Positions 15,824 through 60,633 of a DNA stretch of 64,000 bases are shown piece after piece. The stretch is from Mesorhizobium australicum. Its GTDB lineage: Bacteria; Pseudomonadota; Alphaproteobacteria; Rhizobiales; Rhizobiaceae. The stretch is taken from assembly GCF_900177325.1 (NCBI RefSeq), contig NZ_FXBL01000004.1:4278001-4342000 (forward strand), read 5' to 3'. A program made the position numbers and the translations under genes. Under the pieces are notes generated by a model that saw nothing but the letters and a program-made list of their open reading frames with translations, was not told where the DNA came from and ran no database searches. How positions within the stretch are numbered: the first letter of the stretch is position 1; each line of letters starts with the position of its first letter.

Positions 15824-15871
15824 GAAAAAATCGACGCGTATTAAAATTGTGAATAGCGAAGGCGTTTGTTG

Positions 15872-15886
15872 GAACATATCATGAAC
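15872..15886. promoter_or_regulatory. LexA (SOS) box, GAAC-N7-GAAC
   Basis: GAACATATCATGAAC reads on the minus strand as GTTC-N7-GTTC, the alphaproteobacterial LexA recognition sequence. It ends two bases before the ATG of the radical SAM gene, so a bound repressor would cover the ribosome site and start. Confidence 0.8.
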
Positions 15887-15888
15887 AT

Positions 15889-17124
15889 ATGCCAGCGCCC
15901 ACCATCCGCGAAAAACTCGCCATCCTCGCCGATGCCGCCAAATACGACGCCTCCTGCGCTTCGTCGGGCGCGGACAGGCGCGACTCGCTGAAATCGGGCG
16001 GCATCGGTTCCACCGAGGCCACAGGCATCTGCCACGCCTATGCGCCGGACGGCCGCTGCATCTCGCTGCTCAAGATCCTGCTCACCAACTTCTGCATCTA
16101 CGACTGCGCCTACTGCATCAACCGCTCGTCCTCCAACGTGAAGCGTGCCCGTTTTACAATCGACGACGTCGTTACCCTCACGCTCGACTTCTACCGCCGC
16201 AACTACATCGAGGGCCTGTTCCTCTCCTCCGGGGTCATCCGCTCGCCGGACGAGACCATGGCCGAGATGGTCGAGGTCGGCCGCCGGCTGAGGCTCGACC
16301 ACGCCTTCGCCGGCTACATCCACCTGAAAACCATTCCGGAAGCCTCGCAGGAGCTCATCGAGCAGGCGGGACTTTATGCCGACCGGCTGTCGATCAATGT
16401 CGAGCTCCCCACCGACGAGGGTGTGCAGCGCCTGGCGCCGGAGAAGCGACCGCAGACCATCCGCCGCTCGATGGCCGGCCTGCGCGAGAAGCTGGACGCG
16501 GCGGCCGAACCGACATTGCGGACGAAGAAAAGGCCGCGCTTCGCGCCCGGCGGGCAGTCGACGCAGATGATCGTCGGCGCCGATCCGACGCCGGACGCGA
16601 CGATCCTGAAGACCAGCGCCCGGCTCTATGGCTCCTACCGTCTCCGCCGGGTCTATTACTCCGCCTTCAGCCCGATTCCCGATTCCTCCGCCGCGCTGCC
16701 GTCGATGAAGCCGCCGCTGATGCGCGAGCACCGCCTTTACCAGGCCGACTGGATGATGCGTTTTTACGGCTTCGAGGAGCGCGAGATCCTTGCCGGCCGG
16801 CCCGACGGCATGCTCGACCTCGCCATCGATCCAAAGCTTGCCTGGGCCCTGGACCATCGCGCGATCTTCCCGGTCGACGTCAACCGCGCGCCGCGGGAAC
16901 TGCTGCTGCGCGTGCCGGGCCTCGGCACCAAGGCGGTCAAGCGCATCCTCGCCTCGCGTGTCCATCGCCGGCTGCGGCTGGAGGACGTCGGGCGCGTCTG
17001 CCAGTCGATCGCCGCGGTCCGGCCGTTCATCGTCGCCGAAGGCTGGTCGCCCGGCGGAACGATCGACTCCGAACGCCTGCGCGAGACGGCGGCGCCGAAG
17101 GCCAGGCAGTTGGAGCTTTTCTGA
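15889..17124 (+). CDS. Radical SAM protein, putative DNA modification/repair (UdgX-associated)
   Basis: 411-residue radical SAM enzyme of the family annotated 'putative DNA modification/repair radical SAM protein'. The Fe-S motif is 'TNFCIYDCAYC' (Cys69, 73, 76; CxxxCxxC). A C-terminal helix-hairpin-helix ('DVNRAPRELLLRVPGLGTKA', about 325-345) points to DNA binding. It ends with 'QLELF', a possible clamp-binding tail. Its stop overlaps the ATG of the DUF4130-UdgX gene (TGATG at 17122), so the two are co-translated; this pairing is a known genome association. A LexA box covers its start. The chemistry it performs on DNA is not known. Confidence 0.88.
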   Translation: MPAPTIREKLAILADAAKYDASCASSGADRRDSLKSGGIGSTEATGICHAYAPDGRCISLLKILLTNFCIYDCAYCINRSSSNVKRARFTIDDVVTLTLDFYRRNYIEGLFLSSGVIRSPDETMAEMVEVGRRLRLDHAFAGYIHLKTIPEASQELIEQAGLYADRLSINVELPTDEGVQRLAPEKRPQTIRRSMAGLREKLDAAAEPTLRTKKRPRFAPGGQSTQMIVGADPTPDATILKTSARLYGSYRLRRVYYSAFSPIPDSSAALPSMKPPLMREHRLYQADWMMRFYGFEEREILAGRPDGMLDLAIDPKLAWALDHRAIFPVDVNRAPRELLLRVPGLGTKAVKRILASRVHRRLRLEDVGRVCQSIAAVRPFIVAEGWSPGGTIDSERLRETAAPKARQLELF

Positions 17125-18644
17125 TGGGAATGGTCGAGAAGCGCCCGCTCTCCGCGCACCATGCAATCCTGCTCGCTTCCCAAACCGATTTTTCCGGCTG
17201 GCGCGAGGCGGCGCGAGCGCTCGCGCTGAATGGCGTCGACCCGTCGGATGTTGCATGGGCGGTGGAGGGCGAGGAGACGGGCAACCTGTTCGCCGCACCG
17301 CCGGATTCAACGCCACTGCCGGCAATCCCCCCCGGCGCCGAACTCCGCGTCCCGCGCCGCTTCGTCGACCTCGCCGAGGCCGTGATCTGCCATTCCGACC
17401 CGGCCCGCTTCGGCTTCCTCTACCGCATCCTCTGTCGGCTGCAGCGCGAGCCGCATCTGCTCGACGTCGCCACCGATCCGGATGTGCGCAAGCTCGAGGA
17501 GATGGAAAAGTCCGTCCGCCGCGACATCCACAAGATGCGCGCCTTCGTCCGCTTCCGGCGCATCGCCGACGAGACCGGCGAGCGCTTCGTCGCCTGGTTC
17601 GAGCCGGCGCATTTCATCGTCGAGCGCAATGCGCCCTTCTTCATGCGCCGGTTCACCGGCATGCGCTGGACGATCCTCACGCCCCATGCCACGGCCGACT
17701 GGAACGGCGAACGCCTGGCGATCGGTCCCGGCGCCTCCAGGGCCGACGCGCCCGCCGAGGATGCCGCGGAGGAGCTGTGGCGCACCTATTTCCGCTCGAT
17801 CTTCAACCCGGCCCGGCTGAAGGTGAAGGCGATGACGGCCGAGATGCCCAAGAAATACTGGCGCAACCTTCCGGAGGCCTCGCTCATTCCTGACCTGATC
17901 GCCGGTGCTGAGAAATCCGCCCGCGACATGATCGAGAGGATGCCGACCATGCCCGCCCCCCATCATGAGACGGTCCAGGCAAAACACTGGCGCAACCGGC
18001 CCGCGGAGACGCAGACGGACGGGGCGGATGCGACGTCGATCGCCGAGTTGAGGAAGGCCGCCGCCGGCTGCCGCCGCTGCCCGCTGTGGCGAAACGCCAC
18101 GCAGACCGTGTTCGGCGAAGGCCCGGACGATGCCAGAGTCGTCTTCGTCGGCGAGCAGCCGGGCGACCAGGAGGATATCGCCGGAAAACCCTTCGTCGGT
18201 CCGGCCGGCCGGCTGTTCGATACGATCATCGAGGAGGCCGGCATCGACCGCGCGACAACCTACGTCACCAATGCGGTGAAGCACTTCAAGTTCGAGCCGC
18301 GCGGCAAGCGCCGTATCCATTCCAGGCCGAACGCCGGCGAGGTGCAGGCCTGCCGCTGGTGGATCGATCGCGAGCTGAAGCTGATCAGGCCGGATTTCGT
18401 CGTGGCGCTCGGCGCGACCGCGGCGCAATCCCTGCTCGGCAAGGCAGTGCCGATCACCAGGATGCGGGGCCAGACGGTCACGCGGGAGGACGGCCTGAAG
18501 GTGTTCCTGACCGTCCACCCCTCCTACCTGCTGCGCCTGCCGGATGATGCCAAGGCGGCGGAGCGGGAGCGGTTTCTTGAGGATCTCAAGCGTGTGAGAA
18601 CGCTCATGGACGACACGCGGTCGATGGATGCTCGCGGGCGTTGA
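17124..18644 (+). CDS. DUF4130-UdgX fusion: uracil-DNA-binding protein
   Basis: 506-residue fusion. Residues ~1-260 form the DUF4130 domain ('SAM-dependent probable DNA metabolism' family); residues ~305-495 form UdgX, a family-4-like uracil-DNA glycosylase. Visible UdgX motifs: 'GEQPGDQED' (343-351), the R-loop 'GKRRIHSRP' with His399, and 'TVHPSYLLRLP' (464-474). In Mycobacterium UdgX the equivalent His forms a covalent bond with the sugar after uracil removal, so the protein stays bound to DNA. 'GCRRCPLW' (316/319) and Cys410 are probable Fe-S ligands. Expressed with the radical SAM gene, and from the LexA box probably in the SOS response. Confidence 0.92.
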   Translation: MGMVEKRPLSAHHAILLASQTDFSGWREAARALALNGVDPSDVAWAVEGEETGNLFAAPPDSTPLPAIPPGAELRVPRRFVDLAEAVICHSDPARFGFLYRILCRLQREPHLLDVATDPDVRKLEEMEKSVRRDIHKMRAFVRFRRIADETGERFVAWFEPAHFIVERNAPFFMRRFTGMRWTILTPHATADWNGERLAIGPGASRADAPAEDAAEELWRTYFRSIFNPARLKVKAMTAEMPKKYWRNLPEASLIPDLIAGAEKSARDMIERMPTMPAPHHETVQAKHWRNRPAETQTDGADATSIAELRKAAAGCRRCPLWRNATQTVFGEGPDDARVVFVGEQPGDQEDIAGKPFVGPAGRLFDTIIEEAGIDRATTYVTNAVKHFKFEPRGKRRIHSRPNAGEVQACRWWIDRELKLIRPDFVVALGATAAQSLLGKAVPITRMRGQTVTREDGLKVFLTVHPSYLLRLPDDAKAAERERFLEDLKRVRTLMDDTRSMDARGR

Positions 18645-59682: not shown

Positions 59683-60633
59683 ATGGCGAGCCAGGGCGGA
59701 TCGAAGACGGTCATCTACGCCGCGCTCGCCGGCAACCTTCTGATCGCGGCGACCAAGTTCGTCGCGGCCTGGTTCACCGGCAGTTCCGCCATGCTGTCCG
59801 AAGGCGTCCACTCGCTGGTCGACACCGGCAATGGCGGCCTGCTGCTCTACGGCATGCACCGCGCCGAGCGCCCGCCGGACCGCAGCCACCCGTTCGGCCA
59901 CGGCCGCGAGATCTATTTCTGGAGCTTCGTCGTCGCGCTGCTGGTCTTCGCGCTCGGCGCGGGCGTCTCCTTCTACGAGGGCGTGATCCACATCATGCAT
60001 CCCGAAGAGATCAGCAACCCGACGATCAATTTCATCGTGCTCGGCCTGTCGATCGTCTTCGAGGGTTCGTCTTGGTTCGTGGCGCTGCGCGAGTTCAGCA
60101 AGACCAAGGGCAATCTCGGCTATTTCGAAGCCGTCCGCAAATCCAAGGACCCCAGCGTCTTCACCGTCCTGTTCGAGGACTCGGCCGCCCTGCTCGGCCT
60201 GGTCATCGCGCTTGCGGGCGTCACCGGCGCGCATCTGCTGCGCATGCCTGAGCTCGACGGCGCAGCCTCCATCGGCATTTCCTTCGTGCTCGCCGGCACG
60301 GCGATCTTCCTCGCCCGCGAGACCAAGGGCCTGCTGATGGGCGAACCCGCCTCGCCCGAAATCCAGGCGCGCGTGCTGGAGATCGTCCAGGCCGATCCCG
60401 CCGTGCACAAGGCCAACGGCGTGCTCACCGTCCATCTCGGCCCGCACCAGATCGTCATCGGCCTCAGCGCCGATTTCGAGGACACGCTGACCACGCCCGA
60501 GATCGAGGCCTGCGTCGAGCGCATCGAGGCGAGGCTGCGCGAGGCGGTGCCGGAGATCACCGGCGTCTTCGTCAAGCCGCAGACCTCGGGCGAATGGCGC
60601 CAGCGGCGCGACGAGATCCTGGCCAATGGCTGA
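59683..60633 (+). CDS. Cation diffusion facilitator (Zn/Fe exporter family)
   Basis: 316-residue CDF metal/proton antiporter, with about six helices and a C-terminal cytoplasmic domain. Metal-binding 'EGVHSLVDTGNG' in helix 2 and 'HPFGHGREIYFWS' after it are the characteristic motifs; 'SKDPSVFTVLFEDSAALLGL' carries the second site. ATG 59683 after GGAGG. Metal specificity not determined. Confidence 0.92.
   Translation: MASQGGSKTVIYAALAGNLLIAATKFVAAWFTGSSAMLSEGVHSLVDTGNGGLLLYGMHRAERPPDRSHPFGHGREIYFWSFVVALLVFALGAGVSFYEGVIHIMHPEEISNPTINFIVLGLSIVFEGSSWFVALREFSKTKGNLGYFEAVRKSKDPSVFTVLFEDSAALLGLVIALAGVTGAHLLRMPELDGAASIGISFVLAGTAIFLARETKGLLMGEPASPEIQARVLEIVQADPAVHKANGVLTVHLGPHQIVIGLSADFEDTLTTPEIEACVERIEARLREAVPEITGVFVKPQTSGEWRQRRDEILANG

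What the first reader, a model, noticed from the sequence alone, without database searches (positions are those of the whole stretch)
15872..18644. SOS (LexA) box directly on the start of a radical SAM / DUF4130-UdgX operon
GAAC-N7-GAAC at 15872-15886 is the alphaproteobacterial LexA box (GTTC-N7-GTTC on the other strand), ending two bases before the ATG of a putative DNA-repair radical SAM gene. That gene overlaps the DUF4130-UdgX gene by TGATG. UdgX binds uracil sites covalently through the 'KRRIH' His, here His399. SOS control of this pair would mean that the radical SAM enzyme and covalent uracil binder are a damage-inducible, partly undescribed repair system.
Basis: partly seen in the sequence, partly recalled or inferred. 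Interest (0 to 1): 0.75.

Follow-up and report, generated by a model that had tools for sequence, protein, structure and literature searches.

The report
SOS-controlled radical SAM/UdgX repair operon
A DNA-damage switch sits on the start of a two-gene bacterial DNA-repair operon and is kept in nearly all of its alphaproteobacterial relatives that were looked at; that control was already published in outline, and what is added here is which part is controlled, how the switch lies on the promoter, and a recurring link to an error-prone DNA polymerase.

Summary
In detail: GAACATATCATGAAC lies at 15872-15886, two bases before the ATG of a TIGR03916 radical SAM gene that overlaps a DUF4130-UdgX gene; His399 is right. 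Alone the site proves nothing (1.56 expected per window), but comparison does. The exact box precedes 88 of 92 homologous loci and 54 of 54 loci of a second sample of the same class; outside this stretch it is about 500 times rarer. Of 29 loci from other classes, 19 carry the E. coli-type box CTGT-N8-ACAG and 5 a one-mismatch form. LexA control is very likely, but not new: a 2021 paper cites it for Verrucomicrobia and Alphaproteobacteria. Added: the box covers a likely -10 element, suggesting a leaderless mRNA; six Cys are invariant in 175 of 175; the operon repeatedly adjoins imuA-imuB-dnaE2, once across a shared box. Best reading: an SOS lesion-processing unit, often beside the DnaE2 mutasome. 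The chemistry is unknown.

The parts
15854..15859 (+). predicted -35 element (TAGCGA), weak here
   Evidence: T and G at -18 and -16 from the box start occur together in 42 of 56 loci whose box lies at -17; other offsets from -40 give 0-8, except 15 at -2 next to the box. Inferred.
15872..15886 (+). LexA operator GAAC-N7-GAAC
   Evidence: 88 of 92 homologous loci and 54 of 54 of a second sample of the same class, 14 of these inverted; other spacers 0 of 92.
15877..15882 (+). predicted -10 element TATCAT inside the operator
   Evidence: T and A at box offsets 5 and 6 in 100% and 98% of a 55-sequence profile, T at offset 10 in 63%; TAnnnT in 36 of 56. Could also be conserved for LexA binding. 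Inferred.
15889..15889 (+). predicted transcription start at the A of the ATG (leaderless mRNA)
   Evidence: 7 bases after the last base of the -10; Shine-Dalgarno-like core at -16..-4 in only 5 of 56 such loci. Inferred.
15889..17124 (+). radical SAM protein, TIGR03916, with a C-terminal helix-hairpin-helix
   Evidence: the HhH match, 21.4 bits, is below Pfam's cut-off of 27; Cys 23, 48, 57, 69, 73, 76 and His49 in 175 of 175 homologues.
17178..17879 (+). DUF4130 / TIGR03915 domain, residues 19-252
   Evidence: TIGR03915 is present in 84 of 84 genomes with TIGR03916 over cut-off.
17883..18596 (+). UdgX domain, TIGR03914, residues 254-491
   Evidence: PDB chains of M. smegmatis-type UdgX match at E 7e-54.
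18318..18320 (+). codon of His399, the expected cross-linking His of KRRIH
   Evidence: a His in this loop in 134 of 134 homologues with a GEQPGD domain in the held DNA.

Best explanation
An SOS operon. LexA binds a direct-repeat operator that covers the -10 element and blocks RNA polymerase; RecA-driven LexA cleavage opens the promoter, which probably makes a leaderless mRNA from the ATG. The products are a radical SAM enzyme and its near-constant partner DUF4130, here fused to UdgX, which captures uracil or AP sites covalently through His399. I propose that radical SAM and DUF4130 chemically process a damaged base in DNA, that UdgX seals resulting or nearby uracil/AP sites, and that the unit works at gaps and forks handled by the ImuA-ImuB-DnaE2 mutasome. 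Supported by comparison: LexA control (about 0.93) and the radical SAM/DUF4130 pairing (about 0.95). Inferred: leaderless start (0.65), work alongside the DnaE2 mutasome where present (0.45), lesion chemistry (0.4). The confidence given is for SOS control plus the two-protein core.
For: Box conserved and position-specific: 88 of 92, 54 of 54; exchanged for the E. coli-type box in 19 of 29 non-alpha loci, one mismatch in 5 more. Own genome: lexA with a GAAC-N7-GAAC box and two imuA-imuB-dnaE2 cassettes each with a box just upstream of imuA. Pair: 84 of 84 genomes. Lone UdgX has no exact box near it in 16 of 17, and one-mismatch sites there are no commoner than in control stretches. Promoter. 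Mutasome link: one exact box lies between the operon and divergent imuA in 7 of 8 radical SAM loci of family f19; dnaE2 lies directly downstream in 5 of 13 radical SAM genomes of family f28, with imuB upstream in 4 of these 5. Co-occurrence in alphas: 53 of 55 radical SAM genomes have a DnaE2-type hit against 52 of 80 without radical SAM.
Against: No expression or binding data here. The own recA has no exact box in the stretch held. 5 of 29 non-alpha loci show no LexA-type box within one mismatch. Of six further loci from named records outside both samples, one (Caballeronia) matched one of six box patterns exactly; Bacteroides finegoldii, Fusobacterium, Gemmatirosa, an Acinetobacter contig and a faecal contig matched none. 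12 of 84 radical SAM genomes lack a DnaE2-type hit (E printed as 0 used as proxy, counted by eye). In the window's own genome the operon is far from both cassettes, and two further f28 genomes opened (G341, G254) show no imu gene in 13-15 kb. The -35 is weak in the window; in loci with the box at -18..-22 the TTGAC lies two bases nearer, giving a 15-bp spacer, and in those at -27..-33 no -35 stands out. No structure could be predicted, so the chemistry is inference.
Confidence: 0.88

Rival explanations
1. Radical SAM and DUF4130 form a self-standing direct-reversal enzyme (spore-photoproduct-lyase-like), SOS-induced in its own right; UdgX and the imu genes are only fellow members of the regulon.
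For: The pair occurs without UdgX over cut-off in 19 of 29 non-alpha genomes and without a DnaE2-type hit in 12 of 84 (by eye); six invariant Cys and an HhH-like region fit a DNA-acting radical SAM enzyme.
Against: Recurrent imu adjacency in families f19 and f28 and in L090, in f19 across a single exact operator; a GEQPGD (UdgX-type) domain lies downstream in 124 of 146 alpha loci.
Confidence: 0.4
2. UdgX is the effector: an SOS-induced covalent AP-site shield that works like the SRAP proteins HMCES/YedK, and radical SAM/DUF4130 create or release its cross-links.
For: The cross-linking His is kept in 134 of 134; PMC10359453 (passages) suggests AP-site protection; a lone UdgX sits beside imuB-dnaE2 in G253.
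Against: UdgX is dispensable for both the pair and the box; 16 of 17 lone UdgX loci lack an exact box near the gene.
Confidence: 0.2
3. The GAAC-N7-GAAC is a chance match and the operon is not under SOS control.
For: 1.56 such sites are expected per window.
Against: Conservation, position, spacing and operator turnover.
Confidence: 0.03

Closest known systems
SOS-regulated COG1573-COG4277 operon (PMC8565304; cites Erill 2016 and da Rocha 2008, neither of which is held)
   Same: UDG plus partner gene predicted under SOS motifs in Bacteroidetes, with earlier reports cited for Verrucomicrobia and Alphaproteobacteria. That COG4277 is this radical SAM gene is my recollection, from no call.
   Different: The passages read do not give the DUF4130 core, the operator/-10 overlap or the shared operator with imuA, nor did I see an induction test of this operon. 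I saw passages only.
UdgX of Mycobacterium smegmatis (PDB 6ail and others)
   Same: UdgX domain with GEQPG, KRRIH and HPS motifs.
   Different: Here it is fused behind DUF4130 in an SOS operon; the PDB chains are 205-229 residues of the domain alone.
imuA-imuB-dnaE2 mutagenesis cassette
   Same: Same operator type, recurrent neighbour, in one family across a single exact box.
   Different: Different proteins; not adjacent in the window's genome.
SplB / spore photoproduct lyase (COG1533)
   Same: Radical SAM enzyme in SOS regulons (PMC8565304 and PMC3765255 passages).
   Different: This one is TIGR03916, and no PDB chain matches at E up to 1e-3.
SRAP proteins (HMCES/YedK)
   Same: Linked to SOS polymerase operons (PMC3765255); covalent AP-site binding recalled, from no call.
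   Different: Held to be unrelated in fold and chemistry (recalled); analogy only.

Membership tests
Alphaproteobacterial LexA regulon | GAAC-N7-GAAC (GTTC-N7-GTTC) operator in the promoter | tested here: met
Alphaproteobacterial LexA regulon | lexA gene in the genome with its own box | tested here: met
Alphaproteobacterial LexA regulon | Induction by DNA damage and LexA binding | not testable with these tools
   Needs RNA and footprint data
TIGR03916 radical SAM | Score over the curated cut-off; CX3CX2C | tested here: met
   559.8 against 343.5 bits; Cys 69/73/76
UdgX (TIGR03914) | Score over cut-off; GEQPG; R-loop KRRIH; HPS motif B | tested here: met
   341.2 against 189.95 bits; motifs start at residues 343, 395, 465
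UdgX (TIGR03914) | Covalent bond to uracil/AP sites | not testable with these tools
   Needs a gel-shift with uracil DNA
DUF4130 / TIGR03915 | Score over the curated cut-off | tested here: met
   225.9 against 112.25 bits
imuA-imuB-dnaE2 cassette (as a part of it) | Adjacency to imu genes in this genome | tested here: not met
   dnaE2 copies near 65 kb and 455 kb, operon near 4.29 Mb of contig C4
Spore photoproduct lyase | Sequence match to SPL | tested here: not met
   Only TIGR03916 in NCBIfam at E up to 1e-3; no PDB match at 1e-3, no SPL among the 19 weak profile matches
Spore photoproduct lyase | Reversal of a thymine photoproduct | not testable with these tools
   Needs the purified enzyme

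The most novel reading that the evidence does not exclude
Radical SAM, DUF4130 and UdgX are an accessory arm of the ImuA-ImuB-DnaE2 mutasome: they convert or cap lesions and uracil/AP sites in gaps so that DnaE2 can finish or is kept off, and in some lineages one LexA operator shared with imuA couples their expression.
Probability: 0.3. Interest if true: 0.75.

Novelty: new member of a known kind. Interest (0 to 1): 0.42.

Why it matters
UdgX is used in uracil-mapping methods (PMC10359453, passage) and in base editors (abstracts in the listing), yet its precise role in the cell is called largely unknown (same passage). Its SOS setting, the optional nature of UdgX and the link to DnaE2 give direct genetic tests. 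The radical SAM and DUF4130 proteins have no solved relative that I found by sequence, six invariant Cys and a tight pairing, so a DNA-repair reaction may remain to be described.

Tried and rejected
Chance origin of the box: rejected on conservation. UdgX as the reason for SOS control: rejected, since 16 of 17 lone UdgX loci lack an exact box near the gene and the pair without UdgX mostly keeps one. Exact sites only were sought; allowing one mismatch in 450 bases before the UdgX match adds 3 of the 16 (L191, L201, L202), while 36 of 175 control stretches inside radical SAM genes have one too. I had taken the three DUF4130 loci without radical SAM (box kept in 3 of 3) as further support, but in all three the box also serves the divergent imuA, so they say little. 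SPL membership: no support by sequence. Defence system: no PADLOC match. Phage origin: 2 viral contigs with a relative (L216 has the box before the gene) and 10 phage-collection records, of which I opened two: one has no annotation, the other has glyS and glyQ beside the pair and looks bacterial. Not pursued. The second window site (59772) lies inside an ORF with a GC-rich spacer and is taken as chance. Folds of both proteins could not be obtained; sequence searches of the PDB gave nothing better than E 0.05 for radical SAM (RuvA/ComEA-like HhH and radical SAM cores) and E 2.3 for DUF4130.
Full report
Observation. The sequence is as described. Gene 1 (15889-17124) is TIGR03916, named by NCBI 'putative DNA modification/repair radical SAM protein'; gene 2 (17124-18644) joins TIGR03915/DUF4130 to UdgX. 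'Alpha' below means the same class as this genome by the tool's kinship, which I take to be Alphaproteobacteria.

Is the box more than chance? As a bare pattern in 64 kb, no. GAAC-N7-GAAC lies at -100..+5 in 88 of 92. Of the other four, one has the box inverted (L090) and three have a one-mismatch site (L045, L047, L063). Eight other spacers gave 0 of 92 and the reversed pattern 1 of 92. Outside -130..+5 the pattern, in either orientation, occurred 11 times in 754,483 bp, against 93 times in 12,420 bp inside.

A second sample, 398 genomes drawn across the phylum, had 84 genomes over the TIGR03916 cut-off. Besides the own genome these are 54 alpha and 29 other loci. All 54 have the box, in either orientation, at -150..+30; in 14 it is inverted. 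The two alpha samples may share species. Of the 29 others, none has the alpha box, 19 have CTGT-N8-ACAG, and 5 more have it with one mismatch. The remaining five are L101, L138, L150, L157 and L161. A replaced operator with retained control is strong evidence for selection on SOS regulation. Against this, of six loci from named records outside both samples only the Caballeronia one matched one of six box patterns exactly; Bacteroides finegoldii, Fusobacterium, Gemmatirosa, an Acinetobacter contig and a faecal contig matched none (two of the starts were approximate).

Own regulon. lexA (L131) has GAACACATATCGAAC upstream. Two imuA-imuB-dnaE2 cassettes each have a box just upstream of imuA. recA has no exact box in the stretch held.

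What is controlled? In the 398 genomes TIGR03916 over cut-off is in 84 and TIGR03915 in 87; all 84 have both, and three (G240, G257, G327) have DUF4130 only. The two are usually neighbours but not always: in G269 and G281 they lie about 3 kb apart, and in 2 of the 80 loci (L053, L065) no partner was found in the 4 kb held. UdgX over cut-off is in 78 genomes: 53 of 55 alpha radical SAM genomes but 10 of 29 others; one of the 19 without, G426, has a below-cut-off UDG-like stretch in the fused position. Of these 19 loci 12 have the exact CTGT-N8-ACAG box, 5 a one-mismatch form and 2 neither; of the 10 with UdgX, 7 have the exact box. I took 17 loci with UdgX alone: one (L189) has an exact box near the gene and appears to be a deletion remnant with the tail of DUF4130 still in front of UdgX; 16 have none near the gene (L197 has one about 1.5 kb away). 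So the operator goes with the radical SAM/DUF4130 unit rather than with UdgX.

Promoter. Of 146 alpha loci (92 + 54), 143 have an exact box at -130..+5, 128 of them (nearest site) in the GAAC orientation; the commonest distance is -17 (56 loci). In these 56, T at -18 and G at -16 from the box start occur together in 42, against 0-8 at other offsets except 15 at -2, beside the box. This is 17 bp before TATNNT inside the box; TAnnnT is there in 36 of 56, though this part may be conserved for LexA as well. With the ATG seven bases after the -10, the predicted start is the ATG itself. A Shine-Dalgarno-like core lies at -16..-4 in 5 of 56, while 20 of 56 have an in-frame alternative start upstream, which weakens the leaderless claim there; one search lists none for the window. 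In the group with the box at -18..-22 a TTGAC stands two bases nearer (15-bp spacer), and in the group at -27..-33 no -35 stands out. Leaderless mRNAs are known in this class (171 such starts in S. meliloti; PMC3616915, abstract and passages). The -35/-10 assignment is inference; the simple scan did not report it.

Neighbours. In family f19, 7 of 8 radical SAM loci have imuA on the other side of the one exact box (L178 does not); the three loci without radical SAM do too. In L122, L123 and L128 an ATG in an open imuA-side frame lies at +17 from the box, the same spacing as on radical SAM genes elsewhere. The ORFs of L219 were identified as ImuA-like (35.6 bits, below its cut-off of 150), Y-family polymerase-like (ImuB-like) and error-prone DnaE (1548.8 bits, cut-off 939). 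In f28, 5 of 13 radical SAM genomes (G127, G171, G195, G290, G393) have dnaE2 directly after UdgX; four of these have imuA-imuB upstream on the same strand at gaps of 0.06 to 2.5 kb, with one box before imuA and one before radical SAM. In G195 no imuB was found in the 2.1 kb held, and G341 and G254, also f28, show no imu gene in 13-15 kb. L090 (Henriciella) has divergent imuA-imuB-dnaE2, and L074 (Rhizobium) has imuA 2.8 kb away. In all, 12 of 175 loci showed imu genes in the flank held, which was only 0.8-1.5 kb in many, so this is a lower bound. In 135 alpha genomes a DnaE2-type hit (E printed as 0) is in 53 of 55 with radical SAM and 52 of 80 without (Fisher p 6e-6); relatedness and genome size are not controlled. 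Twelve of the 84 radical SAM genomes lack such a hit (by eye).

Proteins. In 175 homologues (146 alpha, 29 others) Cys 23, 48, 57, 69, 73, 76 and His49 never vary. The first three Cys could hold a second cluster or a metal; that is inference. The expected cross-linking His is present in all 134 homologues with a GEQPGD domain in the held DNA (124 alpha, 10 others): KRRIH in 77 and a variant in 57, two of which (L136, L156) have an altered loop, TRKH and RRKH.

Literature. PMC8565304 (passages) reports the COG1573-COG4277 operon among predicted Bacteroidetes SOS genes and cites Verrucomicrobia and Alphaproteobacteria reports; those two papers were not held. PMC3765255 (passages and sections 5 and 7) links DUF4130 to radical SAM and UDG proteins. 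PMC10359453 (passages) reports UdgX activity in Bradyrhizobium diazoefficiens and calls the role largely unknown. Searches for UdgX with radical SAM and UdgX with LexA found no paper in the open library; of the papers listed I read passages of three (PMC8565304, PMC3765255, PMC1839093) and saw no account of the imu adjacency described here, the rest being seen as listings only. That library lacks most subscription journals, so I do not claim it is unpublished.

Verdict. An ordinary but well-kept SOS operon of a known kind, whose control was already reported, with three useful additions: the radical SAM/DUF4130 core, the operator over the likely -10, and the imu linkage.

Noticed in passing
L138, L150, L161 (G134, G342, G432; one genus, family f61), a few tens of bases before the radical SAM start: These loci lack a LexA-type box but share a perfect inverted repeat TCTCAT-CCA-ATGAGA that is the only such site in each genome: perhaps another damage-responsive operator.
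   Followed up: partly
L207, upstream of 2489: An Acinetobacter contig filed as a phage, but with glyS and glyQ, carries the radical SAM/DUF4130 pair; its upstream region shows imperfect inverted repeats (by eye) and no match to six box patterns.
   Followed up: no
L230 (G253): A UdgX gene without radical SAM or DUF4130 nearby lies tail to tail with imuB-dnaE2.
   Followed up: partly
L189 (G111), 2129-2263: Apparent remnant: radical SAM and most of DUF4130 are gone, yet the LexA box remains just before the DUF4130 tail and UdgX.
   Followed up: partly
L204-L206 (G240, G257, G327): No radical SAM, but DUF4130 and the box shared with divergent imuA are kept; in G327 UdgX is missing too.
   Followed up: partly
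L212, upstream of 3001: A faecal contig filed as phage has two stretches resembling the Firmicutes box (GAAC-N4-GTTC, imperfect, judged by eye) before the radical SAM gene; no exact match.
   Followed up: no
window 59772-59786: The second GTTC-N7-GTTC of the window lies inside an ORF (59683-60633) and has a GC-rich spacer: probably chance.
   Followed up: yes
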